A stretch of DNA of 64,000 nt. Origin: Onchidella celtica (taxonomy: Eukaryota; Mollusca; Gastropoda; Systellommatophora; Onchidiidae). The notes below the pieces were generated by a model that saw only the letters and a list, made by a program, of their open reading frames with translations, did no database searches and was not told the origin of the DNA. The position numbers and the translations under genes were made by a program. Where the stretch lies: positions 55,542,311 through 55,606,310 of the forward strand of contig OZ007571.1 in assembly GCA_963931925.1 (NCBI GenBank), read 5' to 3'. Positions 6,120 through 42,000 of the stretch are shown one piece after another; the first letter of the stretch is position 1; each line of letters opens with the position of its first letter.

Positions 6120-6185
6120 ACGTTTATGTAGCGGCCAGAATTCTCCCAGCGCCCTGTCATTCCGTACATTGCTGCAGAAGTCCTC

Positions 6186-7205
6186 CTATCGTTCGTTCTT
6201 GGCCTGCCTGGCTGTTATCTTGAAATCTTGCACTGCCCTTTTCATTTCTTCCTTAGCAGTTTCAACTTCTTCCACTGTGTGTGTTACACTTTGTCGCATC
6301 ATTTGCCATATTTTTGTCGCTTGTCTCTTGTATGCCCATATCTCATCTACTTTATCATTCCACCATGGTGGTTGCTTGTATCTTGTCCTCTTTCTCTGCC
6401 TATTTCCCTTGTGCCTTTGTTGGCGCAATCTGTCCAACAGTTTTCCTTCAGTTGATGGCCGTAGATATCTAAATGCCTTCCTCCTATGCCTGGCCTTTGG
6501 TGTTCTCTGTTGCCTTATAAGGACCATGCAGGGAACATGATCACCACCATGGCTCCTAAGTGTTGTGAATTTGCACAGTCCTGCAAGTCGAGGTGTAACT
6601 AGCGCGAGATCTATGCAACCATCTGTCTCTCCAGGCTTCTGTGCAATCCTCGTGGCTGTGCCATCATTGATGCAGACCAAGTCTGAGCCCAACAACCAAT
6701 TTTCGAGCTCCTCTCCTTGTGGGTTTGTTGGTGAATTACCCAGTAGTGGCATTCTAGCATTGAAATCACCACACAAAATCACCTCTCCTTTTAAAGTGGA
6801 ATATATATCCTGTAGGACGTTCCACTCATCCGTATGGGTAAACGTGCTGTTACAAGCGTATATATTAACTATGTTTATGGCGAAGTTTGCATATTGTATT
6901 TTGACACCATGCACTTGAAGTTTGTCAGTTGTGTGCCTCTTCAGATCTAGGTTAGTTGCTGTGAGACCATCCCTGATCACAATAGCCTGTCCATGTTTTT
7001 CGTCTTCGTGGATGGCTTGAAATCCACAGACCCGGATCTGACCACTCTCTTGCCTGCATCTTGTTTCCTGCAGGACTAGGATGTCTGTGTCATACGCAAG
7101 GCGTTCCAAAATTTCTCCCTTTTGGCGCGCGCTCCGGCAGTTCCAGAAGCAGAGTCGCAGATTGTTTTTGGCTAACCGCTGGGCTTTCGTTTCGTGTTGT
7201 CGCAT
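6186..7205 (-). pseudogene. LINE endonuclease/exonuclease/phosphatase domain block
   Basis: This is an APE-like endonuclease of a non-LTR element. Visible active-site motifs are WNCRS (N22), LQETR (E47), GDFNAR (D147, N149), IDLALV (D199) and GGDHVP (H223), followed by a basic linker rich in Lys/Arg. It would nick target DNA to start reverse transcription. The frame stays open for some codons upstream of the first Met at 7205, so the true start may be farther up. It ends in TAG, but the next codons continue in frame with a plausible linker into the RT block. A single nonsense mutation is therefore the simplest explanation. Confidence 0.88.
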
Positions 7206-7350
7206 TCCTGCTCGGTGGCATCTTCTTCGCCGGCCGGCTCTCTTTCCTCTCTTGTTCCTCCTCCTACTACTGTTCCCTGTCCCAACATTAAACGGGACCT
7301 CAAGCTCAGGGCACGTGCTCCGTAGCTCCGGCGAGGGTTCTAATAAGTTT

Positions 7351-8447: not shown

Positions 8448-8640
8448 CTGTGGGATCCAGCACGGCCTATGCTTGTGAGGATGGAATCCTAATTCTGGAA
8501 TGTCAGCGCGGAGAAGTCATCCGAATTTTGCGTGCCAACTATGGTCGCTTCACCATTTCCATCTGCAATCAACACGGCCAGACCGAGGGCTGGAACCTGC
8601 AGTGCATGTCTTCACAAGCCAAAGATATCATATCGGAAAG
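8448..8640 (+). CDS. ADGRL: ADGRL exon: SUEL lectin, first part
   Basis: The acceptor is a pyrimidine tract ending TTCTTCAG and the donor is AAAG|gtaagc; phases are 1 to 2. It encodes the start of the galactose/rhamnose-binding lectin fold: [17 protein letters not shown] and the following Cys residues are the family hallmarks. The frame is open upstream to an ATG pair at 8378, followed by a moderately hydrophobic stretch that could act as a weak signal peptide. I prefer the splice acceptor because of its strong pyrimidine tract and the usual separate signal exon. Confidence 0.9.
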
Positions 8641-10442: not shown

Positions 10443-13400
10443 GCTGTTGTTGTTGTCCTTCTCCTTCTTCTACTTGCTTTTAATTATATGACCTGGTCAT
10501 TCACTACTGGACCTAGAATTTTTTTTTTTCCCTTTTGTTAGACAGGCAGAAACCTGTTTAGTGTAAAATGGGCTGATCGGTAATGGTGTGCCTATAGATC
10601 GGTCAGTATTAGCATTCTTGTAAGACAGTAAATTTAACGTCCCTTTTAGAGGGTCAGTTTGATGGCCTTGTGGGGCATTCTTTAAAACGCCTTTATAGGA
10701 CGAACAGTTTAACATTCTCACAGGACAGTCAGTGAAATGCCCCTGTAGACAGATCAGTGAAACTACCGTGTGTGACTGATCAATGCATCGTATCCATTGG
10801 ACATCCAGTATAAGTATACTGTCTCTGAGAAACAGTTAGTGTACTCATCTTGTACAGCCTGCAGCCAGTATGACAGTGGACAGCCAGTATTTAAAGTATA
10901 CTGTCTCTGAAAAACAGTTAGTGTACTTTTCCTGTGCAGTCTACAACCAGTATAACAGTCTGACAGCCAGTGGACGGCACCCGTAGGACAGCCTGTAGAG
11001 CGTTTCATGAATACAGCTTGTGTCACGTTTCCGTAGAACAGCATAACGTCTGTACGGGACCGTGAGTTGAAGAGAGGAAAGGAAAGATGAGACGTTTTGA
11101 TTTACAGGAGGTGAGCTTTGAGATTTTGCTGCCTGTCATTCACTGAGCACAAGATGACAACTCAAGGGCTCACGTCCGTGCTCTCAATTGCATGTGCAAA
11201 CATTGGCATTGATGCTGACGCACGCGCGTGCGCAAACTTGTGCGTTTATTGAATCATGAAAACATTGAAATCATGCGTGTGTTGCTCACAACAGTGGTTC
11301 TCATCCCATTTTAGATATGTTTCCATTATAACAACTACGTCTATTTCGGTGTGCTGAAAGCATTTAGAATTTCACGGTCATCCGTTATCTAGCTTCAGAT
11401 TATTTCAGATTCTGGTGTAATGGAATACAATAGGAAGTTAGATCAGTAGGTGAGCAGATAACAAGTGAGATGTTATTGGGTGACGTCTGAATTCGTCCAG
11501 TAGCACCGACAACAACAATGGCCACCTCAAAAATCGTCGCGTGTCCAGTGGCCATTCCCTACCAATAAGCCAGTCTATGTCGATTATTCCATACCGCAAT
11601 CATGATAGTCTCAGTATTTCCCATTTACATGGGCGTTCAACTCTACCTGCTAGTGTTCAGTGTTGGAATATGAGCTTCAGAGTGGACAATACAGTCAGTT
11701 GGTTTCTGGCGTTATTGAGAGAATGTGCCCATGAATATCGTACTGTTTGCGAGGAAACACTTCAGGCGGCAGATCTGCGATAGGAAATGTCTAGCCAGAA
11801 GTCTTAATTGTACGTATTTTCTAAGAATTACCGAGTATTAGTTGTCAGAATGGTCTGACAGTAGAATCGTAATGTGATTGTTAGTTAGAGGAGAGTATCA
11901 TATTTCGGTATACACGAAACAGCAAGCTTATCAGCATGTCTCAGATATACAGTCCACATTGAAACTCGACGGTATCCTCTTGCAGGTTGAGATCATAGCC
12001 TATCGTTTTTTTGCTTAAGCCAACAATATTTTAGACAGGCCCTCTTTGATTTTTAGAGTTTTAGTTTAAACTAAAACCTGGACACCTTTTCTGGACAACG
12101 GGTGGGAGAATAAACTCAATGTTTCATGCCAAACGTCCAGGACTAGTATGGCATGGCTGAAGTAGGCATGACCTAGCCAGGACGCGTGATTTTTTTTCGT
12201 ACTCACTTTACCAAATTCAGGAGCACGGCAGCAACAGACCCCCAAACACAGGTCATCGGCTAAGGGATTTCTCGTCCTACCGAACACTGCCATGGGTGCT
12301 GCAATCTCTGGTCTGTGCACCCTAATCCTAACCCTAAAATGACTCTGAACGTCACCGAAAATCCCTGTAATATGTTGGAGCTGTTGCTGCCACGCTCCTG
12401 AATTTGGTAAAGTGATTGCGAAAAAAAAAAATCACGCAGGGCAGCCAGGACACAGGTTGGATGTTACACCGTGTGGCGTCACTGACAGTTTTATCACAGT
12501 TTGAAAATAACTGTTTTACGACCTTAGTCTTTCTTTGTATCAGCTGTGTCCTGTCTCTTCATCTGTCAGTCCATCTTGTGCTGTTAGGTAGTGCAACACA
12601 CTCTCCTCTCTTTCAGTAGTTTTCTGCCTCTCTGTCCTGAACTGTCAGCTAGTCTAGCGCTGCCCTCAACTATCGCTATGATGATTGAGCATGTCTGGCA
12701 ATGTTTCGATCTCTGTCTCTCCCCCCTGGCCTCTGCAGGTGTGACGGAAGGCGTCGGTGTGAGATGCATGTCAATAACCATGTGTTTGGTGACCCTTGCC
12801 CCCTAACCACCAAATACGCTGAGGTCAAGTACACCTGTCAGTTAGGTAAGACATATTTGTCCTGCTTGCACCCGCTTTACTTGCCACATTTGTGTACGGT
12901 GTTTTTTGTTTGTTTTTTTTATTTTGGTTGTTTGTTTGTCTTTAATTTTCGTATTAAATTCGTTTGATGATAGATGTAACGTAGCCCAGCTTTTCTGCCT
13001 CGTCTCAAGGGACACTATCCTAAGTTGCTTGTGCTAGACTGAAATATTTGTCATGTCCCCTTTTTCCTCTCTGTTTACCGAGTGTGAGCGGAATATATAA
13101 TGCCAAGAAAAGGAGACAGCACAGGAAGGAACAGACTGGCCTAATTTTTATATTCTGGAAATGTGTTATACTTTAACTGAGTGTTGTTGGCAGTTTAGCC
13201 TGTATGTTTTCTCCTTGTTTCCCTTTAAATTTGTGAGTTTGCACTATTGCATTATACCGTATGTTTTTTTGTTGTTATCGATGTCGTGTTTTTTTTTTTA
13301 ATGTTTATTATCACATGGACTGCTTTGTGACGTGAAGTGACCGTCATACATGGCGTGATTACCACGTTAATTATCTAGTGGTTTTTAGGATGGACGCGTT

Positions 13401-16400: not shown

Positions 16401-19400
16401 CCGTATGCACAATCAATGCGTAAACTAAAGTAAATACGTTGACTAGTGTTAACGCAAGAAATGAATACAATTTCTCGTGTTAACACCAGTCAACGTATTT
16501 ACTTTAGTTTACGCATTGATTATGCATACGGCTACAGGACAGGTATTGGCCATGCATATATATTCAGATTTTGACCTCACTATGTTAATCGTGTATAGAC
16601 TGGGTATCTTTCATCGATTTATATATAGAATAGGTGGTCAAGCCATACCAGAAATTAACGGAAGGTTTTAATTGGCTAGTTGGCAAAATGATGATTCCTA
16701 CAATATAATGGAGGGCAAAAATGTTGAGGAAATGCTTGATTTTTTTTTCTTTTTTTTTTTTTGAAGAAAAAAAAAAAAAGACATTTTAGTTGTGTGTTAA
16801 ATGCCCTGAAGACTTTGGTAATGTTTTTACTTTAATTTGCAGTGAGACAATGAGTATCAGAGTGAAAAGTAACCGATTGATTCCAGCGGCTCTGGGCGGC
16901 TCGAGAGTAATTTACTGAACTCAGATAATATTCAAAGTAATACAGTATGTCAGACAGGATAAACCTTTGTTAAAAAAAAATGTTGAATCTGTTGACCATG
17001 TTCCCAGTTTTACGGGGTGAAAACTTCTGACTTGTTTAGCGGGGGTCATCAGGGTTTTGGTCACTTTCCACAGACACATTGGCAGTAAATCAGTTAAAGG
17101 AAATCGGTAATACCGTGCAGTATTGTGGTCAGTTATTTTCAGTGGAGGAAACCTTGTTTTGATATGTGAGACGTTGCAGTGTGAGGGGGTTCCTTTCCCT
17201 TTCCCACTAGCACAAATTTGATCATGTTGGTGAATGAGACGGGTATCACTACCCTTGCTGATGTTTTAGATTAACATGGCAGAGCGATGATGTATTTTCT
17301 AGCTATTTCTTGTTTTTGTTTTTAGTTTTTTTTTTTTACTTTTTTTCATCATTGATAGAGCAGCTTGTCTCAGGGTGGACGTTTTTATACTCAATGGAAA
17401 AGCTAGCCGTTGTGGGTTAAGCAGTACTAGACCTAGTGCCAGGTGTTGCATTCCTAGAGCATAAATTGCAATAATTTTAGAATAAATATTATGTCTGAAT
17501 AGCAACAGTACAAGGTATTATACACTCAAGAGTATGTAATGCTATTTAAAATTGATAACAGTGCTACATCTTTTACTCCAAGAAAGTAGATGTAATGTTT
17601 GATCGGTAAAATGTAATGTGTGAACAGTAACGGAGTAAACACCCCAAGAGAAAGATATGGCAGTCACAAGTTTCATTCTCCTGAAAGCTCTCACTCTGAA
17701 ATTGATTTTGACCTTGATGTACCCACAGATGGGTCACCTCGACCTCCACACATCACGTCAGTGGAACCGCTCAGCCCTTACAAATTGAAGATCAACTGGA
17801 CGCAAGAGGCACCATCTAATCCCATCATTACCACCGTGGTCTACCTGACTGACCAAGGTAAACCTCTAGTTTTACTTTATTCTTTTTAGGGTGTGAAAAC
17901 AGAATAAAACTGTCAGGATTGAAATTGTGACAATGATTGAGAAAGTTCAGATACATACAAATTTGTTAATTATCAATATATTATTATCAATTGTGGCTGC
18001 CACGTTAAGCGAACTTTGACAAATTATGCCATCAGAGATTTCAGGTTGTCAAGTATCAATTCAGTTTGAATAGAGTGGTAATTTTGCAACACAGAATTAT
18101 ACGTGTAAAAGATACTTTCCAAATCTGTGTCATCAGCATATTTTTATTGCAATCTTCTTTATTTTCATCATAATTTATGATTTTATAAGTAATATAAATG
18201 TAAATTACAATCAGTCAGTTGATAGAAAACAGCCAGAATAGTAATGTCAGTGGACATGAGCTCAGTCCTGCTAACTGGACTTGCCTTCCTTCTGAGTCGA
18301 ATTGATATAATGCAGGAGTGGCCAAGCCGCGGCTGACGAGCCACATAACTTTGACATTCTATCTGCGGCTCGTGGAAATGTTATTATGTTGGCTGAGCTT
18401 TTTCTAAAATAAACATCATTAAAAATCTCTTTTTTTTTTAAAACTTTGGCAGTCTAATTTTGTTCCTGAAGTGCAAATTCACACGTTTTTCTTAGATGAT
18501 CCCGTCGTTCTTTACTGTATCTAATACGTTCAGTATGGTGAAAGCACTCATTAGAGATGTATACTTTGTGATTACTGAAAGTAATACAAATTAACAGTTT
18601 AAAAAACTGCATACATTAGTAAATATTGTTGTGCACATATATTTCTTATTATTTATGTAGGCCTACAATTTATGTAACCAACTGTGTATTTAACAATAAA
18701 AACGTGTGTGTACATTTTGTTTATTTCTTGTGGGTCTCGAACATCTTAAGTTGATCGTATTTGGCTCTTACATTAAGCAAGTTTGCCCACCCCTGATAAT
18801 TGTATTGTAAGGCATCTGTTCACGAGGAGTTGGTGAGTTTGATGGAATACATCTTATCAAGGGACAGCTCTTGTCTGTAGACAGCATCTCATCAGTAGAT
18901 CCACCAGCAAAGTAATCCAGCCTAATTGGATTTTCATTTGTTTTTCTTTTATTCTGTGACTGGTGTCAGAAAAATTTTATCGAAACAATATTATGACACT
19001 GTCAGACACTGTACCTCAAGTCAGAACGTTCAGGGTTGTTTTTTTTTTCGTACACTGATTCCTTCAATGTGTATTCTAATCAAGCGAGCTCAACTTATTA
19101 GGGGATTGATTAGTCTGATCCTGTCAACTGACCAGCCTTATCTTTACAATCAAATCTTCACCATCAGCAATAAGAAACTGCAGGGTGTCATTGTTCGCTA
19201 CTGACCATGAAAAACTCTAGTAAGAACTTCTTGATATGTGTTCTTTTCAAAACGTGTTAACCAATTATTTTCTCAGTTGACCCGCAGCAGCTGATCTTGT
19301 CATTTCTGATGGAAGCCGAACTCCTACAAGTTGATTTAACAAATTTTTATGGTATTTACAAGACCCATATACCCATACTTTACAGCACGGACCATTTCCC

Positions 19401-22400
19401 ATTAGATTTTCAACTCCACTTTTACTTGATCTTACTTCCAGGCATCTGAGGGCTGAGAGCTAGCCCAAAGCGAGATACCGAAAAAAACACCAAAGGCGCA
19501 ATGTGGCCGTTATTGTGCCGACGCGCTGTTAAAACCAAACTCAAACACGCAAATTTATGGTATTTCAGCTTTGGACATGGGGCCGAGCAGTATCTATACA
19601 ATGGAGAAACCAGTGGTGATTAGCCAGCTGCGTCCCAACACTACCTACACCATCTACATGAAGAGTTTCAACAGCCATGGGCCCAGTGTCTCCTCCAACA
19701 TAGTCACGGTCAATACATTACCTAAAGGTTAGTCTAGATGTTTTTGCTGCTGTCGTTATTGCTGTTGGTGTTTTGTTGTTGTCGTTGCTGACTGTTCTTA
19801 TCGGAGATTTACAGGGACGCAGTGCTGTATTTTTCACAGCGTGACCTTTAGCTCCACTTGTCATTTGTTACCAGAGATATAGCGAACTTTAGATTGCCCA
19901 GTTTGTTGGAGCAAAAGACGTCAATGTAGCATAACATGTTTGTAGAACCCTGGCCCTTATACAGCTATGACTGCACTATGAATGATAGATCCGGTGGTTG
20001 CTGGTAGACACGTAGATTATATCGCAGCTAATAGACATACAATGTAATAGATTTTGCCACAGTTGTTAGCTAGCTGCATAAATGATAGATAAATACAGGA
20101 GCTACATCCAGCCAAAGGTAATAGACACAGTAAAACAAGTTTGCTATTGAGATAGGCCCATAGTAGTAGAACTGGCTTTTTATAGTGTTAGTTTTTGTCA
20201 CAGCGAGTAGAGATTTAGTTGTAGTTCCTGAGACAAGGTATGGAGATAGCGGATATCAATTGTCAAAAAAATGTGAGAAAATGTTTTTGTGGTTGCAGTT
20301 TTGCTGTTGTTTCAGTGAGAAGTTGTATATGATTCGGACTGTGGATGTTGCAGGGCTGAATCTCTCCACGCCATATCTTCTCATTGCTAGATGTTGTGTT
20401 GCCCATTTCCTTGTACAAAATCCCTGCAAATCTGTCTTTGTACCGTCTGAATCCACTCACACCCCTGAAGTGGTCAGTGTTTGCTGACAGATGAAGATGG
20501 TCATCATTGTTGTCAACATGTTGGTCATTCAGTCAGATAAGAGCTGATTGTAACCAGTGGGCGGGGAGGGAGTGAGAGAAGGGACTGGGAGGTGACTGAC
20601 GATAATGCCATCATTTGTTAATATGGAGTTGACTATTGCTAGGGTGGAACAGGCGCTATAATGGGTTTCATGAACCGATGGATGAGATAGTCTTGGCCAG
20701 TGAAAAATGAATTCCCATGATTAGAATGAACCGGTCAGTAGCCTACATAAGAAGGACGGTCATCATCATTAAAAAAAAAAAAAACATCTATCTAAGATCA
20801 GACAACTGAAGGTCCGAATCTTCAGAGCGGCTAGTGTCTGTGCTCACATGTTTCTAGATTTTTAACCCATGCTCGATTGCCAGAAGATTCGCTATGCGTG
20901 GAAATGATGATGACGAATGACAGGTCTCTCATGGCCAGGATGGCAGACTTCCGGTCGAATTTTAGGTACTTGAAAACAGTAATTGATGACGCGGATGATC
21001 TGCGTTTTGGGCGCTTGTGAACTTGTCCGTGGTTTGTATGTCATGTTTAGACACGGACATTAAAGGCCAGAGTTGTATTTGGTGATGGCTTGATATGCGT
21101 TAGAGCCATGATCGGTTTATGTTTCACACATAAATGACATTATTAAATTTCTGCTGTCATTCCCCGTGTTTTCAGCTGATGATGTGAGAAAATCTACAAC
21201 CCCCACCTTCCTTCTGCCCCCTGTCACACCCCGTTTCGCCAGCCTGCTTACCACACCTCCTCCACGACCACCACCACCATCATCAACAACAACAACATCA
21301 TCACAAACTACAGAAACTATTAACACGTCCACCGCTGCTACAGTATCCAAACCTACAGATATCCTGTCCACCATAGTCAGTTCGCTACTGACTATCGTCC
21401 CCACAATTCTCCCATCTTCCACCCTCCTGTCCACTGACGCTACCACATCCCAGTCTCAAGGTACTGAAATGAGCACGTGCATAAATATAAATGTATATGA
21501 GTTTTATTGTGATCTCCACTAGCTATTAGTCCATGTCCAGTATGAATCACAGCATGTTTCAGAACACAGCACTCATCCATTGACCTAGTGGCGGATCCAC
21601 GGTGAAACTAATGAAGCTGGAGCTTCAGGTCCCCTAATCCCGGAGGCGTGATTTTTTTCCATACGAGCTTTAGCAAATTCAGGAGCGGAGCAGCAAACAC
21701 ACCCCCAAACACAGGTCATCGACTAAGGGATTTCTCATCCTGTCGAACATTGCTATGGGTGCTGCAATCTCTGGACTGTGCCTGATATGACTCTAAACGT
21801 CACCGAAAATCCCTGGGATGTGTTGGGGCTGTCCTGTGTTTTGGGGTGTGTTGCTGCCCCGCTCCTGAATTTGCTAAAGCTAGTGCGAAAAAAAAATCAC
21901 GCATCCCGCGGGGGAGGGGGGGGGGGGCTGAAGAAACTTTTTTAGTGAGTGAATTTTGGACGTTGCCCTATTGCTGGTTGTGAATGGGCCCCATAACAGT
22001 TCAAACTTCAGGGTCCCAGAAATGTAGGTCTGCCACTTCATTGACCAGTTTACAGCAACAGAGTAGGCGCTTGTCTGCATCTGAAGATCGCCAAAGAGCG
22101 ATGTAGATAGTCTTGAGATATAGCCAGTATAGCCTAGAAGAACCTGACAACGGACGGGTCCTCTGCCCTGTTCCGGAAAAAGACCGGTAGAAGCCAATCT
22201 AGGTCAATTTCACAGTTTAATATCATTGTATTTAATGAAAATAATTTGGTTTATCCTTCCTTCTGGGTTAAAATTGTGTACGACCAACAGCTTCTTTTGG
22301 TCATCACAAAATTGAAATTGAACAAAGAATAAAGTGGGGCCAGGATTTGTTTTCTTTCGTTTTCTGATGTAAAAATTCTATATATGGCTTATACTGTCCT

Positions 22401-25400
22401 TTTCTGTAACACAACAGGAAAAAAAAAATCGGAATCTAAAATAAAAATAAAAAACAACAAATTAAAGCTCTGAATCTCGAGGTAGGGACGGAGGCGAGAG
22501 AGAGGGCGGGGGGGGGGGGAGGTTAAAGTTCAGGCCACTGGTCAATGAATGCTGAACGTGTACTGTGTTGCCCGCACCATGTAATGTCAAAATACATACA
22601 CAACATAGCAAACAGATCAAATCTCGCCAAAGTTTGCACCACATATCTCTTGTACTGCAATAGCCGTTCGTGTACCCATGTAGAGTTTATGTGTATGTTT
22701 TGTATTAAGGTAAGCATGATTGGAGGCAAAGTTCTCGTGGTTTTCAACATGCGAACGTTATTAAATTTGATTCTTTTTTTTTTTTTTTTTTCTTACAGTT
22801 CACCCATTAAAATTTGTCTTACTCCCCATCCCAAAAAGAATTTTTTTTAAAGATCTTATTTCATAATTAATTTACAAAGTAGTTAAATCGGCTTGTCTGA
22901 TGCGAGCGATTAGATTAAATTAAATTAGATTAGATTAGATTAGATTAGATGAAGAGATGGCAAACATTGGAAGAGATATTATGTGGGCAACAAAGGGGGG
23001 GGGGGGGGGGGATTATATGAAAAAAAAATGAAAACGAAAGGAACATAGGTAAAGTCATATACTGGGACACAAGCGAAGCTGTTTGTTTTCTGCGGTTATC
23101 TCGGTGGCAGGTGACATACCGTGAGTGGATGGGGATGACACACACGCACATGGTGATAGAGAGAGTTCATATGGCCATTACCTAGACAACGTGTCTTTCT
23201 CAGCTCACAGAATATGCCATGTCTCTTTTAGTAAGCTTTCCCTCACTTTCAGCCACCGAGGTTTTCGCTCACTAAAACTTACAGGGGGGGGGGGGGGGAA
23301 GAGAGAAGAGAAGGTTATTCCTTCTGTGGGGTATAGCATCACAGTTGAGACAGACACTGCGTCCGGGGGTGACGTGCTTCTGTAGTGACAATGTGCCACA
23401 TGACATAATGCGGTCACTGTGTGGGTGTATGTGCTTCTGTGGTGTATCACTTGACATACAGGGGTTCATGTATCCGCGGGTGTGCTTCTGTGGCGTATCA
23501 GCGACATAAGGCGAACTGTGTGTCCAGATGTGAGAGCATCTGTGATGTATGACATGACAAACGACTGTCACTGTGTTCGACAGTTGGGGATGTTCTTATA
23601 TCGTGTATCAGGAGGCAAACGCCAGTCTTTGTGTCACAGAGGCGTATCCACAGTAACTGTGAGAGTAATGAAGCTTAAGCTTAAGCTTCAGAGTTCCTAA
23701 TACCGGAGTCTCCCTGAGGAACCTCTTTTTCATGAGTGAATTTTGGATGCTGTCCTATTGTTGCTGGTTGCGAACGGGCCCCATAACAATTGAGGCTTCA
23801 GGGTCCCAGATGTAGATGTGTCACTGCTGTGTCGTTTGTTGTGGTACTGTATTGATTTCATCGATTTGCTACAATAGAGTACCGTAATCACATAGTTATA
23901 TAATTTTTTTAATTTTTTTTTGAGTTTGTTTAATGTCTGTTTAATGTTTGTTATTTTAATTGTGCAAGTTACAATCTATGCTGGTCAGAAATACAGAAGT
24001 GTTTACCTTGTTCATCTTCACACCCCACAACTATGTAGTCGTTTAAATACATGTGGTCATTAATTTGTTTGGTATCAGGTGTACATATTCTTGTCAAATC
24101 TTTGCTTCGGTGCGCCACCACCTTCAGAACTCACATCTATAATTTTAAATACAAGCTTTCCTATCCTTGCATCTGCACAGAACCCTCTTTTTAACACGAA
24201 CAGTAAGGTTTGTATCTTCTATTTCAAAATTACCGCTGTTAGCACGGGACTGAACTTCATGGACTCATTTAGCAGTAATAAACTAGCACATCAGTCTTAC
24301 ATTGCTTTCTCTAGCGTGTAAGACCTCACCAGCCTGGTGCCTGGTGGTTGAGAACCACTATTGTAGACTAATTGACCCTTTCCCTAAAGAACAAGGCAAT
24401 AGTTTAATGTCCTGAGCGCCTGGATAATTGCTAAGTGTCTCCGTCATGGACAAGCCATACTTTTAAGAGCCAACTGATGATGTGATAACTCTTTGTCTTG
24501 CCTTTTTTGTCCAAGCGGGGACTTCAGACAAATACCAGCAACTGGCTGCTTTCATTAAAGTGGCTAGTAGTCCTGGCCGAACCGAGGATAAGAATGGACA
24601 AAAGATGGCAAGACCTTTGGGAACTTACGATGGTCAGTTTGTGCACAAGGAAATGAAATCAAATATAGGTGATCCACCCTCAGCCCGGAGTTCCAGAGAG
24701 AAAGCAAGCGCTTTGGCGCCACTGGATATTCAGACTACAACCGACTGTGGCCGCATCTGTATTGCTGCAAAAAGCAGCAAAGAGAAATTGGCAACAATAG
24801 CCACAGCCTCTGTTAAACTTATAGTCCAAACACCAGTGCCAGCAGTAGCCAGTGAATATGGAATATTCAGTCATCGTAAGTCCTGGGTTACTCAAGCTGT
24901 GACGGATGCCCTGAAAAGCCAAGATCCCAGCCCTGTAATAGTGAAGAAAAAAATGCCGGCAGCCATACATTTGTCACAGACTGATGTGGAACCCCATGCA
25001 GGTAATACAGAGACATTTGAGGAAAGCAGAGGAGATCAAACAAGTATTCGTAACCTGCGCAATCATGGACGTCGAGGAAGAAAGCCAACCGCAGCTGCTG
25101 ACGGTCTGTTATTCCGGCGTTTAGACACCGATCAAGCTAAGACTTTATCAAAGCAGGTCCCAGTTGCAGGGAACTTCAAAACAACACCAGATGTTCTGTC
25201 TACAGTGTCCCTAGGCCCTAAATCTGGCAAAATAGTCCTTGGTTCCTCCCCCAGTCAGGGCGTCAAATCGCCAACACGGATGACAGTGTTCGGGCCAATT
25301 GGTTTGACTACTAGCCGTACAGGTCTGCGTAAGTTGACAGAGTGGACACAGCCTATTGCATTATATAACCGCCTACATCCGATGTATAAAACCAACTGTG

Positions 25401-30057: not shown

Positions 30058-33000
30058 CTCTCTCTCTCTCTTCCCTCTCTTTCTCTCTCTCTCTCTGTCT
30101 GTCTGCCTGCCTGTCTGTCTCTCTCTCTTTCTCTCCCCCCCCCTCTCCCTCACACTCACTCACTCATGCGGACATGCGTGCAAGAACGCTTACACACACA
30201 CCAATATACCACCCATACAGACACACCACTCATGCCTAGAGCCTGATGTTACCGAACATCCCCGTGCGCGTTTTTACCTATCATTAACTGTTTGATGACC
30301 AGCACCATAATCATACTACCTTTCCTGTTTTAACAAAAAAAAAAAAAAAACGACAGAAACCTAATCAATGCCACTGACAGTAAAAACACAAATTTAAATC
30401 TCTCAAACACAGTTGGGATACACTTGAGTACAAAAGTTGTTGCTCAGTGATATCTCATACTGTAGTTTGTTTTCTGGTTGACCCCTTTTCTTTTTCCTGC
30501 ATGGCCAGCATTGGCATTATTGAGGCTTTTGTCATATTCTGTGTGCCCTTGCCTGACCAGTAGTGGACAGTATCCAGTGTGTTGTCTAATCCATCTTTTC
30601 CTGCATGACCATCAGTGGACGATATTGAGTCCACTGTCTAACTTTTTAGTTCTACATGGGGAACAACGGACAATACCAGAACTGATCTAATGTTATATTC
30701 TGCATGACTGTTTTGCATGCCCAGTTGCGTCTTATTAACATTCACATACGTACATATTGAGTATACAATATGTATTTGATTTCTCAGTGAGAGAGAATAT
30801 TGAAGAGGGTATATCGGTGGATTACTGACTCAGTGTATTGGGGGAGGGGGGGGGGGGACACACAAGGGTTGTTATAATGTTCAGTTGGAGGAATGGAGAA
30901 TGAGAATTTATCAAACAGTTGTGTTACTGAGGGCAGATTACATAGAAAATTGCTAGTAACTCGGAATCATTCCATATATGTTTGAAAGTATATAATAGAT
31001 ATTTTTAAAAAACCACGGTATTCCTTATTGCCATAATACAAATTTGCAATCAGTGACTTCGAGTGTGATGCATAAATGTGAATAAATATTAATAAACAAA
31101 TTGGATATGAACATTTTCATAAATCTGTCTATTCACTTAAATTTCAGAGGTGACACATACCTCAGGCACCGACCACATTGACCAGGAGATCAGAGGACCA
31201 TCCCTCTTCACCACCACCACCTCTCCTCCCACCACCACTACTACAACCACTCCATCTACCACTACTACCACAACTAAAAAGCCAATGGTGATTATTGGTC
31301 CAACCACATCTAAACCAGATCTGAACCCATCCCCCATAGAGCCAGAGATAGTTGGGGAAGGAGACGCAGGGACATTTCCTGATGCTGGAGTTGTGGACAA
31401 ATTCTGTCCAAAAACCTGGCACAAGGGAGTCGTGTGGCCACAGACAAGATTTGGTAGGATTGCTGAGGGAAGCTGCCCTGAGGAATTGCGAGGTGAGCAC
31501 GTTTATCGGCTTAATGGACATACATAAGTATACAGTCACTGTTCCCTAAAATTGTAGCCGTCTGTTTTGACTGCTTTTCAGGAGAAGCATAAACTTGCTT
31601 TATTTTAGTACAACTGGCCTAATTATGATGAATTTTAGAACATTTGAAATTTGATTCTTTCCAGGTTAGGAGTCCAGAACCAAGATCATTCGATGCGGCT
31701 TTCAATGTGGTTGATATATAAATGTCAGGTTTTCAAATTTTTGAGTTACTATAGTCTTAGGGAAGAGTGACGACATGTAAACGAATGTTTGAACATTACC
31801 ATAATTCCAGAAGCCGTAGGCTAGAGTTTCATTAAGCTAGTACCTTTTATATGTGACATCCCTCACCAGAACTAGGGGGGATCCAGTGTTATTCTGAAAA
31901 TGGAGTTAGCTGCATTTTCTTGTCTACTATACTTATCTTTCTTATCAGTGGCTTGTTAACAGAAAAATTCAGTTCTTGCAATTTGTTGGGGGGGGGGGGG
32001 GGGGGGGGGGAACTGGTGAGTTCTTGGAATGGAAATCTGACATCTGTTCCTAAGTCTCAGTTTTTTCAAAACTTCTGCCAGATTTACATAGTTTTGGTGA
32101 GGAGTGTGAGGCAAATTTGCAGTCTCACCCAAATGCACCTTTGTTGGTTTATGCAAATGTTTTCCCTCGTGTCCTTAATTATAACATTTATATAAAAAGC
32201 AGTTTTTCGTACTGGTGGCCAGAACTTTCACATTTTTTGTGTGTTTTTTTGTTGTTTTTTTTAATGTGGCAAAAGATGAAGAGGTGGTATTTTGTAAATT
32301 CCTATGTTCCTGTTAAATTAGCCCGAAAAAAATGATAAGAATTGTGATAAATTTTTTAAAATAATAAATAGTGAATGCGATAAATGACATCCTCAAATGA
32401 GAAGCCTGCACGAAGGCCACAGCATCAAACCAATTTCTCCCCAAGATAAGGATTTAAGTCAATTTTCTCTCATTTCAACACAAACCAGAGCCTCAGACCT
32501 CGGTCATGCAGAAAAACACAGGTGAAGGAGAAAATGGGTTTTTGTTCCAGCTCAGAATGTTGGTATTTTTTTTATATCGCAGGTTCTGCATTGGTGGTGA
32601 AATCTTGTTTCTTTAGTCCTCAGCTTTGCTACACTCATCCTATTTGGCGCTCATTTGATCCTATTAGCTCCAGATCATCCTGCTGCAACTGTGCTTTGTT
32701 CTGGACATTTTGCTAATGGCTTTGGCCAGGATTTTAAGGATTTTTTGTTGTCGTTTGTTATTCTTTATTATTTAGTTTTGTTTTTTGATTTTTTTTTTTT
32801 TTTTTGGTTTTGTTATTTATTTTGTTTTTTAAAAATTTAATTCTTTTACATTACCTTAGTATTGAAGCAGAAACACTGAAACAAAGTGACATTGGGAAGA
32901 GTGTTCTGTGGAATGCATTGATCAGATCTGGCAACAATATTTCTTCTGTGACCACAACCTAAAAAACTGCTGTAGGAATTCTAGTTTTGAATAAGATTTT

Positions 33001-36000
33001 GTCATGAAAATTGAGATTGTTTGCTCAGGTAGAAAGTCCGTCAGTGACAGATAGGCACAATTGCACATTCGTTCAGTCTTTTTTCCCTTCTCAACATTGA
33101 GCAATTGGAGCTGTTCTTCTCATACTCCTGCAAGGTCAGCCAGTAGTGACAGATGTCAGAATGAAACTTTGTGTGCAGTCTGATCACGGATGTTCACAGC
33201 TGTCAGTTTTCATGGTCATAACTTGACAATTGAGAAAACAGTACAAAGCCTAGAATTAAATCAGGGAATTGCATCATTTTTGGGCTTTTCTGCATGTTTC
33301 CCATTCAGCAAGCCTACATCAATATGACCTATGAAATTGCTCCAGATTTGCTTATATAGGCATGACAACGCTCCTAGCAGATCTGCTTATCAGGATATCC
33401 CACTGCTGTCAATTGAATGAAGGATTTGCATCCCTGTAGTAATCCTACCAACACCATGTAAAGCCTATACAAATCTATGTTGCATTGACATAGGGGTGTG
33501 GTGGGTTGATTGTGCATGTCTTTAACAATGAAGACACTTGACTCTGTGTGTCAGTAAGAACCTAAGCCCTTGATCAGGTGTGTCGGTAATAATATTTACA
33601 CTTGATTCTGCATATCAATTACAGTATACATACTTGACGATTTTGACTATAACACCTACAAGCATGATGGTACAGGTCACTGATAACCAGCATGGGCAAT
33701 AGATTCTCATGTTTAACAGAGCAGTGACAAGATGTTCCAGTCTCTAACAGTCTTTTACTACTGAGATTGTGTATTGTCATTGTTTTACTGTCCTCTCTTG
33801 CCAGGTGGTTCTACTTGGCGTTGCCTTGGTTATGGTTGGGAGAAGTCTGGCCCTGATATGTCTTACTGTATCTCTCCTTGGCTGGACAGTATGGATATGC
33901 AAATCAATAATATGGTGAGTGGTCATCTGTGTATGTTAAATTTACTGTAGCTTTGAAATGTGTCATTGCACATAATATTATTACAATAGTCAGAAGTTAG
34001 CAGGAGGTTTGAAATGAGTCACTGAGCATGAAATTAGTACAGTGCAAAGAGTTTGTAGTAATTTTTGCAATGTGTCATTGAACAAATGATCAGGACAGTG
34101 CCAAAATTTTACAATTGTAGGTGTGTAATTTGTTACAGAGCACGCAATTTAGGAGAACAGGACCAAAGGTTGCAGCAGGTTGAGATGGGTCACTGGACAC
34201 ATAATTAGGACAGCGTTAAACTTTGTTACAGATTGAAATGCTAAAGTTTGCAGTAGATTTGATTTGTGTCACTGAGCAAAAAAGGTGCCTCATTTGGGAA
34301 AATCAGTGAAAAGTCAGGCGATGTTGACAGATAAGTCACTGTATGTGTAATAATAGTTGATTTTGATTTATCAAAAAAATACAGAATAAGACCCTGCCAG
34401 CAACCATAGGGAAGTCTGACACACAGAATTTAAGTCATCAAGTATGCACATAGGAATATCAACGTTCCTATTTAGATCTGCTGGTTAAGACATGACACCA
34501 ATGCCAGTCTGACAGTCTGATGGAGGGAGCCTGTCCCTACAGTAGTCCTACTAATCCTACAGAAATTTTATGTCAGATTGATGTAGCGATGCTGGCTGGG
34601 GACCCATCTTACAGATAGTAGTGCAGAAACAAAGTATTACAGAATGCCTAGTTTAATATTTCATGACTCAATTCTCTTTGCACGAACTGCTGGCCTGAAA
34701 GATCACATTAACACTACTTTTAAGGATTTTTTAAGGATTTTTATATAATCGGTTTTCAGCTAGGAAAGATATTATGCAGTTTGTTGACTGGTATTGATTA
34801 ATATAGGATCTGCCATTTGAGCTCTTGCAGATCAGAGGAGAAGAGCCAGTAGATCAGGCAGCTATGACCCTGAGGGATGCGATGAGAGGCAGAGATCTCA
34901 CTTCAGGAGATTTAAAGCAAACAGCCATGAGACTTTTACCTAAACTGGCACAAGGTCTCTTTAGGGAGGAACCTGGCCTAGATATGCCTGCCAGAAAGAA
35001 AAGAATGAGAAATTTTAAGAAGGTAAACATCCACAACTGTGTAATATGTGAGTGTGCATGGGAAAACCCGGCATAAGTCGGCAGAGCTGATTTTGAGAAA
35101 AACGGCTTTGAAGTGAAAATATGGGTCGACACAAACTTCCAACTTGGCTGTTGTTTAGGGGACCGTGGCATGTTACAGGGTAAACTGTAGACGAACAGTG
35201 AACACTACTCACTATGATCTCTATAACGGCTTTGTAATTAGACTGCAGTCTCCTAACAAGATCCAAAAACTTCCGACTTGGCTGTTGCTAGGGGACAATG
35301 GCATGTTACAGGGTAAACTGTAGATGAGCAGTGAACACTACTCACTATGATCTCTATAATTGCTTAGTTATTAGACTACGACCTCCTAACAGCCATCACT
35401 CCAATATTACTTGGACAATTAGCTATTGCCACTTATAGGATTAAATGCTGTTTTCTCAAAATCTTGTTTTAGGGGGGTCACTGACTTCAATTTATCAGAA
35501 ATGTCTTGTCTTTTATTATATGTACAGAACTCAAAATGCCATGTTGCCGACTTATGCCGGGTTTTCCCATGCACACTTACATATTTAAATAGTTTTATGG
35601 TCAGACAAACTTGGCTGAAAATTTTCAAATTTTGACCTCGTCATCTAGTCCAGGTGACCTGTCATTTCATTACTTATAAAATGAGATGAGCGTGGATACA
35701 GGGGAGAAGAGTATTCTTGGTACACAAACGGATACAAATTCGGACTTATGGCAGTTGCAATAACTGATTTGCAATATGTAATTTTAAATATTTAAAATTT
35801 TATTAAATGAAACAATGCATTCTCAAACTAAACAATATATATAACACTATCGGAAGCTACCAAATAAATCCAGGGCAACTTTCAAGATGAATCAGTTAAT
35901 TAATATATGACTTCCTCTTTCAGAAAATTGCAATTTAAAAGAGATAATTAATTACATTTGTTTGAAGATGGGCAAGTTTTTGCTAAAATAGAGGATAGTT

Positions 36001-39000
36001 TCTCAGGTGGGAATGAGTTAACACATCAATGATCTTAGTCCCCCAAGATACAACTGTAATTAATTCCAGTGAAAGACTTGCTTTTTTCCACCCCACAATC
36101 ATCCCCCCTCCCCTCTATTTACCTTCCACCTTGTGCCATGAGAATGGTATTTTAGGGCTTATAAATAATTATTGTCCAATTTGTTACATGAGTCTTTAAG
36201 TGTAATCAAGGACGACCAACCTCTCTGTATATCTCATAGGCTCTTCTGGAGACGACTGGCAGTTTACTGAAAAAGAAGAACCTCAAGGCCTGGGAGGGTC
36301 TGACTGGACAAGACAGGAGAAGATCAGCCACTTCCATGGTTCTTGCAGTGGAAGAGACGGGATTCCAGACAGCCAAACTGTTGGATGTGGGAGTCCCAGA
36401 GGTTACAGTGGATGACAATATAGGTGGGAGCACCGATCGATATTACTATAAAGAGGAAAGAAAAAGTTCCACTGGTTCTGTTCACCCAGGAAACCACATT
36501 AGCTCTTACTGAAATGATTCTTAATAAATTAGAACTCAGGAGAGTAGGAAATCTAGGGTTTTTTGTTTTAATTTTTTTTTGTGTGTCAAGGGAAATAACT
36601 CAGAAATAATAATTTTGAAAGTTATTGCCCATTTTTATTAGTGACCGTCACAAAATTGTATTTTTATGGAGAGCAGAGACATTCCATCCAGACATTTGGG
36701 CCTGTCAGTTTTAGTAATCCAGAGAGTTCTTTTTTTTTCAGTCATGGAAGACAGTGTTGCATATTTTATAATAATTATGTTCAGTGCAAAGAAAGCGCAG
36801 AGTCCTGAAGTGTATATCGTGTAAGTCATTTTTGACGCTTTTGAGAAATTAAGAGGAAACTGTTTCTTTTCCTGTCATCTGGTGACTTTCATCATAATGC
36901 TTCTGTTGGATTGTTACATTTTCCAATTGGTGCATTTCTTTTTCCATAATATTAGCTGACAGCCTTCATGCTCAAGAATGCAGTGAAGTGTCAGTTGCCT
37001 TTTTGCATAAGTCTGACGTATGCCATTTTCATGGAAGAGTGATGATATTACTGGTACTAACAGTAAGTGTAAGTCAAACCCCTGGCAATACATAAACACA
37101 AATACTGTTCAATTTCCCACACAATATCAGTCAGCTGATGCTTAGTTGCTCTTGCAATTCAAGTGCACACAGCCCAACATGAGCTACTTTGACTGACAGC
37201 TTGGGCTATAACTTATAAATTCTGTTTATTTGTATGCTGCAGTGTTGGAAGTGAGCGTGATTGACACAGAGCAGATTCACCACGACATGACTTTCCCAAG
37301 TACCCCTAGTCATTTGTCAAGCACTCCGTGGCATTCCAGCACAGACTCCTTGACCATCACCAGTAAAAGTCTGAAAGGAGCAGGAACAGGGACGCAAGGT
37401 CAGTTATGAGAGAGGGGCACATAATACTTGTAATGTGATACGTTGCTGTCTGGACGCTTATTATAAGTGTGAGAACTAGTCCTGCCTCCTAGCGAAGTAT
37501 GCTGGTAACTTGTGCTTGGGATGGCACATTAGTATTGACATAAACATAGAAGAGTTTTATCAGGCATTTGAAATGGTTTATATCTTAAGTTCTCAATGTG
37601 GGCAATATCACCCCCTGGAATTTGAAATTTTGATTTCCAGGCAGGTGAAAATGAAAAGGGCAACCAGGGGGCAAAAATGATGAAGGAGGGGGATTGGGTG
37701 ATTTTGGAAGTTTGGATTTTTTATTGGTTTTGTTTTTCATTTTTTTGAGTTTGCTTTGTGTCACTGACTGAGCTCCTCTGATTCCTTATTTTCACAAGCA
37801 CATGACACTTGACGACGACACCTCTTGCCGGCTGATTTAAACTATTTGTTGTGCTCACAGCTAAAATTAGAACACAGGAATACCCTGCTACTTATATTAG
37901 GAATTATTTCAATTTGGTGAGACATTTGTAGAGACGGTAAAAAGTGATGTGCAAGGCAGTGGTTGTGGGTCCACTTAGAGCGAGGCTTTTAAACTTGTTA
38001 AATAGAAAATGTCCATTGAAATAAGGATTTCATTTTTTGTTTTATCGCAATTGGTAAAAAATTTAGTGTCATAAATTGTTTCAATAATTACCACTGTAAA
38101 AGTAAAAGTGGTGAAAAAATTATTAGATACTAGCTGAGTTCCCGGCCTTGCCCGGGATAAATCGATTTATTAGTTTCAGTTCTGGGTGATTATTATGGAC
38201 CTCCTTCATTTTGCCTGTTCCTTTAGCTTTTTTTTTTTTTAGATACGTTTTACTGCTCTCCTTTTGCGCATTGACGTCCTGCGCATCCTGCCAGCATCCG
38301 TCAAATGGCTACGATTTGCGCACGGTTAGTTTGTTTGCACATCGCAGAAAGTGATAACGTCATGTGTTAATGGAAAAGAAATATTATGAAATTTTCCTAG
38401 GAATAATATATAAAACACAAACCTGTACTTTTGGCCCTGCAGCGTCAATCTCCCAATTCCAGACCCTTTCTTTTTCCTAGTCTAGGCACATTGAGAACAC
38501 ACAAAGTTTCATACTTGATAGTCGTAGAACTCAATCTCATCATTCAAACCAGTCCTAACCGGAAGTTGTTTTGTGAGTGTCATACAGTCTATACCGGAAC
38601 CAATCTTAGATACATTAATTTGCCGAAAAAATAGACCGAACGCCAATGTGTCGCAACCTAGAAACTAATACAAACGTTCTGTGCGTTGTTAATTATTTTT
38701 TTATTTTCTGTGCCGGGGACACGACCATGGTCTATACTAAGCGTTGCATAAAATCTGAGGGCCACCAAATCAGCATTAACAGAGGAGTAGCGAAAGGCGC
38801 GCTGCAATTGTCGTAAGGTTTCACTTTTATTAATATAGATTGTTTCAAATTGGGGGACAAGTTGAAGAAACCTAGGATGTCAAGGGGAAGGAATGTGGCC
38901 TGGGAATCTGAGCACCACTGGTGTAATGGAACAATGTGATTCATGTCATTTTGATTCACGGGTCGGATACATTTTGTTAACTCATTCCCTAAGGTAAATT

Positions 39001-42000
39001 TTGTGGGTGTGGATGGGAACTCTCAACACTGTCCAGTTTGAAATTTAGGTGTGGTTCAAAGATGTTTTTTCTTGCATTCAATATGAACACAAGACATAAC
39101 ATTTGTGTGGCGCTCCAGGAAAACCCATCGGATGATGCACAGGCTGCTTTTGAGATACAGGCCTACAAAGTCATTTTTCACAGTTTCTCCTTTTACTGCA
39201 CCTGACACTTTAAATGGCCATATCTCAAAAACTATTTGAAATATTGACTTCAAATAAAAAGCAAAATACACAGAAAATGTCCCTCTTTCATAATAGTTGT
39301 ACAGTAGTCTCCACCTAATAACCCGCCTCTCGGGTGACAAAGAAAACGGGCTATTAGGCGGAGCGGGTTATTAGGCGAATTATCAAGGGAGATAACCTCA
39401 TACAAAAAGTTGCATTTCTCAATTCTTCCCCTTGTTTACAGATCGAAGGGGTGAACTCATGTCCCATTTCGCGCGCGAGTTCTGTAGCTTTCGTCTTTAA
39501 AAGTGGCTGGTTCAGTCGAGCATCTTGTTCTAGTTTAGCTTTGATCCAAAGAAACAAGGCCTCATCAACATCTTCTTCCTTAAAATGCCTTTTCCTTTTC
39601 TGTGATAGGTTGCCTGTGGATGCGCTCTCTTTCAAGCTGTCATGAGTTTTAGAGATTCTTGCAACTGTTGTCCTGTCTATGTCACATTTCCTGCCTATTT
39701 CAGTGAAGTTAACTTTTCCTCTCTTTTTGTGCAATAAAATATCATCCAGAATCTCCAGTTTTTTCTTCTTCTCCAAGTCTTTGCGAGGCATTTTCTGTGG
39801 CTTCTTTTTAATCCGAAAGAGAGCGAGAATGATCGATGATTGCAAGTTGAGTATGCAGTGACGAGTGGTGCCACTAGACCAGAGACAACATGAGTGAGAT
39901 GTGACCACCCTCAAGATTAAATCGACCTGATTGGTTGAAAATCATTGAAGCCCACCTATCACAATGCTGCATACACGTGCCCTTTGTGTATAGCCGTGAT
40001 GCGGAGTGTTTGTTCTTGCATCATTTATTGACCACCCGTCCCACACTGCTCTCACGGTCAGTGTTTATCTTTTCTTTCTCTTTCAATTGCATAACACCTG
40101 GCGCCACATAGCCAGGCGAGACGACGGCGGTGTGCGGCGCTATTTATGACAGTGCCGGTGCATATGTTCGCACAGTCTCTGCCGGCTATTGTGCCTACAG
40201 CAGTGGGTAAAGTTTTATTGATGTGCGAGTCGATTGGCAAGCTGAGACCGGCTCAGCGACGTTTATTGTGCGGTGATTTCTTGAAATTGTTTGATTTTTG
40301 TAGCACGGCGCAGGTCAGAAGACCGGGTTATTAGGCGAAGTTCCAGTTGTGGGGCGGGTTATTAGAGGGGTAAAATACATAGTGAAAATTCAGTTTCACA
40401 CAATGAGCGGGTTATTAGGCGAAGCGGGCTAATAGGCAGTGGGTTATTAGGCGGAGACTACTGTATATCTCAAAATGTGAAATTTGACCCATGTGAAGAG
40501 TTTTCCTAGAGCACCACACATAATATTATACATGAAAAAAAAAAAGAAAATCAGTGCACCAGGACTTAGATTCAGTATTCCAACTCAAATATTTGGCTCT
40601 CCATAGTGAAGTGAAAACCCAGGGGTCGAATATTTGGCTTACCATACCGAATGAGTTAAATATTCCTTGATCTGTTGTCTGAATACAGGTCTTGTTAACC
40701 TGGTCTTCACTATGTACACAAACATGGAGGAGCTGATGCAACCTCAGTGGAACACTGTCAGCTCTGTGCCCTCGGGCCAGTCCCCTGCAGTGGATGGAGA
40801 CACTTACTACAATGCAGGCACTATAAGAGACAGCAACACCCTGAGCTCAACTGGACGAGCCCCCACAATGGTGGTCAACACCAGGATTATTGCTGCCTCC
40901 ATTAACAACTCCAAGATGCGGCGACAGTTGTCAGATCCTGTCAGATTTACATTGCACCATTTAGAGGTGAGATGAAGTGTCAGTTTTACATGCACCATTT
41001 ACAGGTGAGGTAGAATGTTAGATTTATATCAGACCATATGCAGTTGAGATGCCTGTCAGATTTACATTGCACCATTTACAGGTGAGATAGAATGTCAGAT
41101 TTACATTGGTAAGATATACTGTCAGATTTATATCAGACCATTTACAGTTGAGACAGACTGTCAGATTTTTACAATGCACCTTTTACAAGGGAGATTGTCA
41201 TATTTACACAGCATGATGTCTCTTTTGGTCACAGGCAATTCAACAGTTTTAAAGATCCAGGTTCTTGTGCAGTGGAATGATTGGCTGAGGCTGTTGTGGC
41301 TCGTCATTGAAAGAGCTTTTGAGTAGCTGTCAGACACTGCCTACATTAAACTATGAACAGTATTTTATCAGTGCCTGCTAATACAGTATAAAGACAAAAG
41401 TAATACATTCAGACACGATTTTGATTTATTGATTTCTATAGTTCAGCTTGTCAGTGGTACTGTGTCAAAATGTTCCATTTTATCAGTGTCATGTGAGCAT
41501 TGCAGGGTTTGACCAATGTGGTGTTATAAGGATTAGAAACAAAACTTCAAGAGAGTGAAGATTTCAGAGAAGTTGAAATTATAAAAATGACATTTTCTAA
41601 AAATCGATTGTACAATTATTGTTTCTGTTTTCTCTGTTTAGCCCAAGAAAGATGCGGTCCCTGTTTGCTCATTCTGGGACCTAGACACCAGGTGAGTGGG
41701 TTTATTCATTGTTCCGCAGTAAACGGACGGATTGCGGCTGATCAGGCTACTCATGTCTCTTGGTACTCCAGGCGATTGTTTCACACTGGGTCTTGTTCCT
41801 AGCTCAGTCTTCTTGGGTGCACGCATAATCTGTGGCATTTGTGCAAAACACCTTTGTCATTAACTCAGCAGAGATCATTTCACTGTGATATTGAACTTAC
41901 AAGATTTTGGAAGTTTGTCCATCCCAAAAATTCTTGCCAATGTTAACCCTTAGAATGACAGAAGGGCCGATGATCGGCCCAGTTATTTTACAGTGAAAAA

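What the first reader, a model, noticed from the sequence alone, without database searches (positions are those of the whole stretch)
17729..19727. Latrophilin with a fibronectin type III domain between lectin and HormR
Two phase-matched exons encode one full FN3 (core Trp in LKINW, RPNTTYTIY, SNIVTVNTLP). Latrophilins known to me are lectin-(olfactomedin)-HormR-GAIN-7TM without FN3. In vertebrates the olfactomedin domain occupies this position and binds FLRT and teneurin partners, so an FN3 here could be a different partner-binding module.
Basis: partly seen in the sequence, partly recalled or inferred. Interest (0 to 1): 0.75.

Follow-up and report, generated by a model that had tools for sequence, protein, structure and literature searches.

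The report
Snail latrophilin with an FN3 domain
A gastropod's latrophilin, a cell-adhesion receptor, carries a fibronectin-type module between its lectin and hormone-receptor domains; the module looks real and is shared with a freshwater snail, but extra domains of this sort in invertebrate latrophilins were already noted in print.

Summary
Exons 17729-17857 and 19569-19727 encode one complete FN3 domain (Pfam fn3 E 8.8e-7). They lie in a latrophilin gene of which 26 exons, lectin to stop, splice in phase into one frame of 1445 residues: lectin, FN3, HormR, GAIN/GPS, 7TM, tail. The start exon was not found.

The FN3 exons have coding-type codon usage and fit the phase-1 introns around them. 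Predicted Bulinus truncatus latrophilin P0001 has the domain in the same place: 39 of 90 aligned residues identical, as conserved as HormR (26 of 55) and GAIN (107 of 242). The tree groups the window with Bulinus and Physella.

FN3 is not general in molluscs: 1 of 17 proteins scanned. Some others have Ig or laminin-EGF after the lectin; chordates have olfactomedin.

A 2019 paper already says several invertebrate latrophilins contain EGF, Ig, LamG and FN3 domains (PMC6422961 section 9), so the kind is known. A further exon, 24516-25328, very likely belongs to the stalk. A partner for the FN3 is inference, and there is no RNA evidence. Mildly interesting.

The parts
8448..8640 (+). Lectin (RBL) exon a; enters in phase 1, leaves in phase 2
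   Evidence: Edges; 60.3% identical to Bulinus P0001 over 68 residues, a few of them outside the exon edge; SUEL_Lectin of the spliced model E 3.7e-20
12739..12845 (+). Lectin (RBL) exon b; leaves in phase 1
   Evidence: 62.9% identical to P0001 over 35 residues
14848..14922 (+). Short Thr-rich linker exon, 75 nt, phase 1-1
   Evidence: AG/GT and phase; fifth in the exon scan
17729..17857 (+). FN3 exon 1 (core Trp in KINW), 129 nt, phase 1-1
   Evidence: 43.9% identical to Bulinus over the aligned stretch
19569..19727 (+). FN3 exon 2 (tyrosine-corner region LRPNTTY), 159 nt, phase 1-1
   Evidence: 42.9% identical to Bulinus over 35 residues
21176..21460 (+). Ser/Thr/Pro-rich stalk exon, 285 nt, phase 1-1
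24516..25328 (+). Candidate further stalk exon, 813 nt, 271 residues, phase 1-1, no known domain; not in the 1445-residue model
   Evidence: 0.148 per codon against a maximum of 0.029 in 500 intron stretches of 300 codons; top of the scan; no Pfam match; no likeness to Bulinus, Physella or Littorina segments beyond shuffles
31148..31492 (+). Thr-rich linker and first part of HormR
   Evidence: HRM E 2.5e-9 on the spliced model
33805..33914 (+). Second part of HormR
34831..40966 (+). GAIN exons 34831-35022, 36240-36423, 37243-37398, 40689-40966
   Evidence: Pfam GAIN E 3.2e-22 on the rough model
41642..42449 (+). GPS exons 41642-41691 and 42326-42449, with HLT followed by NFAVLMD
   Evidence: Pfam GPS E 1.5e-12 on the rough model
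42780..54121 (+). Seven-transmembrane exons (42780-42883 to 53953-54121)
   Evidence: 7tm_2 E 2.9e-24 on the rough model, which lacked some of these exons; 210 of 254 aligned residues identical to P0001
54757..58585 (+). Cytoplasmic tail exons, ending at the stop codon
   Evidence: 204 of 367 aligned residues identical to P0001

Best explanation
This is the gene of a latrophilin (adhesion GPCR subfamily L) of a gastropod, most likely a heterobranch, whose extracellular stalk carries one FN3 domain between lectin and HormR. Shown from sequence: the exon anatomy, one open frame, the FN3 identity, and a Bulinus counterpart in the same place. Inferred: the FN3 entered this stalk before the lines leading to the window species and Bulinus parted, as a two-exon phase 1-1 module. 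It acts as a folded part of the stalk that sets the lectin's reach and probably contributes to binding a cell-surface partner, while the lectin and the GAIN tethered agonist do the conserved work. Because each exon from 14848 to 21460 is a phase 1-1 multiple of three, its inclusion can be regulated by splicing without breaking the frame.
For: 26 exons splice into one frame of 1445 residues, with AG and GT at the internal edges. Pfam fn3 E 8.8e-7 and chains with solved FN3 domains. Codon usage is coding-like. In a scan of phase 1-1 open AG-GT intervals in 8640-31150, the two FN3 exons rank third and fourth among non-overlapping intervals; only 24516-25328 and 21176-21460 rank higher. Bulinus P0001 FN3: local score 125 against at most 63 in 2000 shuffles, flanked by the same domains. 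The tree puts the window with Bulinus and Physella at 100/99.
Against: No RNA evidence. Physella P0002 (named isoform X5), in the same three-row clade, has no Pfam FN3 at E up to 1 and aligns to only 28 of the 93 FN3 positions, so the domain is skipped, lost or absent in that form. P0001 is a predicted protein, its FN3 scores below the Pfam cut-off (18.5 bits against 25) and has extra residues between the two halves. The region 98-224 alone found no relative. Partner binding has no evidence at all.
Confidence: 0.7

Rival explanations
1. The FN3 is only an inert spacer: it lengthens a Thr-rich, probably O-glycosylated stalk and binds nothing specific.
For: It sits among Ser/Thr/Pro-rich linkers, is restricted among the molluscs scanned (1 of 17) and no ligand is known.
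Against: It is about as conserved with Bulinus as HormR and GAIN, more than a mere spacer seems to need, although keeping the fold alone imposes some conservation.
Confidence: 0.4
2. The FN3 exons are an alternative cassette, and the main transcript of this gene lacks them, as Physella isoform X5 does.
For: Each exon is a multiple of three in phase 1-1; P0002 has no FN3; in mammals the linker between Lec and Olf is alternatively spliced and sets teneurin affinity (PMC6978801 passage).
Against: No RNA either way. It would be a mode of use and would not contradict the domain.
Confidence: 0.35
3. The two exons belong to another, nested gene or are decayed remnants.
For: Introns of the gene are long and hold transposon pieces elsewhere.
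Against: No stop, intact splice sites, matching phases, coding codon usage, and a single Bulinus protein with lectin, FN3 and HormR in that order.
Confidence: 0.03

Closest known systems
Bulinus truncatus P0001, named Adhesion G protein-coupled receptor L3 (1802 residues)
   Same: Lectin, FN3 in the same place, HormR, GAIN, GPS, 7TM, tail
   Different: FN3 is longer by an insert between its halves and is below the Pfam cut-off; exon 24516-25328 has no likeness there
Vertebrate latrophilins ADGRL1-3
   Same: Lectin, HormR, GAIN/GPS, 7TM, with a folded module between lectin and HormR in most forms listed (Pfam lists)
   Different: That module is olfactomedin, not FN3; one listed frog protein, P0040, has no olfactomedin match
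Invertebrate latrophilins with extra domains (PMC6422961, section 9)
   Same: The paper names FN3 among the extra domains
   Different: Its Figure 4 was not visible; by my knowledge of the listed species none is a gastropod
P0018 (Argonauta) and unnamed P0014 with Ig; unnamed P0011 and P0012 with laminin-EGF
   Same: An extra module after the lectin
   Different: Different fold; Pfam gives no HormR in P0011 and P0012 at E up to 1

Membership tests
Latrophilin (ADGRL) | SUEL/rhamnose-binding lectin domain at the N-terminus | tested here: met
   PF02140 72.5 bits, full profile 1-80
Latrophilin (ADGRL) | HormR domain | tested here: met
   PF02793 37.8 bits
Latrophilin (ADGRL) | GAIN domain with GPS and an HL-T site | tested here: met
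   PF16489 79.4 and PF01825 48.3 bits; HLT read. Cleavage itself cannot be tested here; HL-T as the site is recalled
Latrophilin (ADGRL) | 7TM of the secretin/adhesion class, grouping with latrophilins | tested here: met
   PF00002; tree of 22 latrophilins, gastropod clade 100/99. No other adhesion GPCR subfamily was put in the tree
Latrophilin (ADGRL) | Olfactomedin domain (chordate form) | tested here: not met
   No olfactomedin match in the model. PMC6422961 section 9 finds it in chordates only among the groups it lists, so this is not a bar to membership
FN3 domain | Full-length match to the FN3 profile | tested here: met
   PF00041 positions 2-83 of 84, E 8.8e-7
FN3 domain | Core Trp of strand B and tyrosine corner | tested here: met
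   KINW and LRPNTTY read in the translation; the meaning of these motifs is recalled
FN3 domain | Seven-strand beta sandwich | not tested
   The spliced protein is not held letter for letter in the DNA, so no fold was requested
Caenogastropod latrophilins P0025 and P0100 as carriers of this FN3 | Detectable sequence likeness of their lectin-HormR segment to this FN3 or to FN3 at large | tested here: not met
   No Pfam fn3; hhalign of two-row profiles, probability 0.1; local scores no better than shuffles, 1851 and 972 of 2000 at or above. A weak hint the other way: 2 of 4 chains are monobodies (FN3-based), E 0.73 and 0.79, over 24 positions. A shared fold is not excluded

The most novel reading that the evidence does not exclude
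The stretch between lectin and HormR is a domain-exchange site bounded by phase-1 introns (seen so far only in this gene), where animal lines installed different modules (olfactomedin in chordates, Ig in Argonauta, laminin-EGF in unnamed mollusc-clade proteins, FN3 in heterobranch gastropods), and the FN3 has taken over the partner-binding role of olfactomedin.
Probability: 0.15. Interest if true: 0.55.

Novelty: new member of a known kind. Interest (0 to 1): 0.3.

Why it matters
Olfactomedin is reported only from chordate latrophilins (PMC6422961 section 9), and the partners of the receptors that lack it are known in few animals. A line with a different folded module at the same place is a natural swap, testable by binding screens in a gastropod with identified neurons. 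It also fits the published view that latrophilin N-termini are modular.

Tried and rejected
Caenogastropod FN3: the segment in Littorina P0025 and Nucella P0100 looked FN3-like by eye. Pfam, hhalign and shuffles gave no support; a two-row profile against solved structures gave two designed TIM barrels (E 0.0088, 0.014) and two monobodies (E 0.73, 0.79), a weak hint only. I do not claim it.

Search of the FN3 region alone: 62 candidates, none at E 10 or better. The third search, lectin plus FN3, gave 2 of 227 candidates; only P0001 has the FN3, P0009 has none.

Paralogues in the own genome: not settled. One search listed four SUEL lectin places and missed one of the two lectin exons of this gene, so its count is a lower bound. 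The loci are about 3 kb. L003 is this gene; L001 and L002 match latrophilins only in the lectin, and L004 gave no hit to four queries. The later genome searches did not complete.

Exon 24516-25328 against segments of Bulinus, Physella and Littorina: 640, 71 and 851 of 1000 shuffles at or above the observed score.

Structure prediction: not requested, because the spliced protein is not in the DNA letter for letter, and P0001 and P0025 exceed 1200 residues.

Full report
What is there. The window lies at C5:55542311-55606310 of a 1.14 Gb genome in 43 contigs. On the + strand it holds one latrophilin gene from the lectin to the stop codon. Guided by relatives and by splice sites, I placed 26 exons from 8448 to 58585. 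They splice in phase to one open frame of 1445 residues, with AG and GT at the internal edges (that call starts the first exon at 8450 to set the frame, the AG edge at 8448 is). The start exon with the signal peptide was not found, so further upstream exons are possible. The order is lectin, short linker, FN3, Ser/Thr/Pro stalk, HormR, GAIN, GPS with HLT, 7TM, tail.

The FN3. Exons 17729-17857 and 19569-19727 encode it. The spliced 97 residues match Pfam fn3 at E 8.8e-7, 29.5 bits, nearly the whole profile; in the 968-residue rough model the score was 23.9 bits against a cut-off of 25. A sequence search of solved structures gives 35 distinct sequences at E up to 1; the five best are pikachurin, Cdon, Dscam, neogenin and contactin-1. 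All four edges are phase 1 and both exons are multiples of three, so either or both can be skipped without a frame change.

More than chance. With codon weights trained on the gene's exons other than the four between 14848 and 21460, the FN3 exons score 0.19 and 0.203 per codon, the training mean being 0.202. Random intron stretches of 43 and 53 codons, 500 each, have means of -0.084 and maxima of 0.162 and 0.181. A scan of open phase 1-1 AG-GT intervals of 60 to about 1200 bases in 8640-31150, with simple filters on both splice sites, ranks five non-overlapping intervals first: 24516-25328, 21176-21460, 19569-19727, 17729-17857, 14848-14922; the sixth scores 4.5 against 6.7 for the fifth. I chose the filters after knowing these exons, and 24400-25600 was kept out of the background.

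A further exon. 24516-25328 (271 residues) was not in the finding. It scores 0.148 per codon against a maximum of 0.029 in 500 intron stretches of 300 codons, has no Pfam family and no likeness to matching segments of three relatives beyond shuffles. I take it as a likely, fast-evolving stalk exon; it is not in the 1445-residue count.

Relatives. One search returned 115 proteins, after scoring only the 7969 candidates sharing most words, so it is not a census. Their precomputed Pfam lists name fn3 in 0 of 115. A phmmer search with the window FN3 at E up to 10 hits 1 of 115, Bulinus P0001. A relaxed Pfam scan covered 17 of the 115, 13 named molluscs and 4 unnamed proteins that group with molluscs in the tree. 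It finds fn3 in 1 of 17 (P0001, E 0.0023, below the cut-off), Ig in 2 (P0014, P0018), laminin-EGF in 2 (P0011, P0012) and two HormR stretches in 1 (P0006). Identity of the window to Bulinus over aligned residues: lectin 53 of 82, FN3 39 of 90, HormR 26 of 55, GAIN 107 of 242, GPS 30 of 47, 7TM 210 of 254; linkers 8 of 28 and 55 of 175, the latter probably raised by low complexity. The Bulinus FN3 scores 125 in local alignment against a shuffled maximum of 63 in 2000.

Phylogeny. A tree of 22 GAIN-7TM sequences puts the window with Bulinus and Physella (100/99), inside a seven-row gastropod clade with two Haliotis, Littorina and Nucella (100/99); the order among the three is unresolved. So the source is most likely a heterobranch gastropod (that Bulinus and Physella are heterobranchs is recalled); the species was not determined. 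Physella P0002 is an isoform X5 without FN3. Whether the domain is skipped or lost there, or whether P0001 and P0002 are paralogues, is open.

Mechanism. Shown: anatomy, frame and homology. From the literature, passages only: in vertebrates the lectin binds teneurin and Olf binds FLRT, and the linker between them is alternatively spliced and sets teneurin affinity (PMC6978801); a table lists Toll-8/Tollo as a ligand of fly Cirl (PMC13197933); C. elegans LAT-1 binds a Notch ligand through RBL and GAIN (PMC12255766). Inferred: the FN3 is a folded stalk module which positions the lectin and may bind a partner, with inclusion open to regulation by splicing.

Known or new. PMC6422961 (section 9 read whole; other passages) says several invertebrate latrophilins contain EGF, Ig, LamG and FN3 domains and calls this a modular structure; the figure with positions was not available. 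FN3 is also in the domain key for sponge adhesion GPCRs (figure legend in PMC4302439). My searches gave no listing that describes it in a gastropod; two searches listed 15 of 227 and 8 of 55, and most listed papers, PMC6608557 among them, were not opened, so this is weak evidence of absence. I file it as a new member of a known kind.

Noticed in passing
24516-25328 (+): Likely additional 813-nt phase 1-1 exon of the same gene, 271 residues without known domain, the highest coding score in the scan of 8640-31150.
   Followed up: partly
3704-7349 (-): Non-LTR retrotransposon pieces upstream of the lectin exons: endonuclease (6189-7349), reverse transcriptase (4476-6185) and RNase H (3707-4546) frames by Pfam.
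   Followed up: partly
39357-39941 (-): Frame with a Tc5-type transposase DNA-binding domain (E 2.1e-5) inside the intron before exon 40689-40966.
   Followed up: no
12233-12318 and 21696-21781 (+): An 86-base repeat, copies 91% alike, in two introns of the gene.
   Followed up: no
16397-16535: Inverted repeat with 66-base arms, 92% complementary, 7 bases apart, in the intron before FN3 exon 1.
   Followed up: no
P0011, P0012, P0014, P0018: Latrophilins of the mollusc clade with other modules after the lectin: two laminin-EGF stretches in P0011 and P0012, an Ig domain in P0014 and in P0018 of Argonauta.
   Followed up: partly
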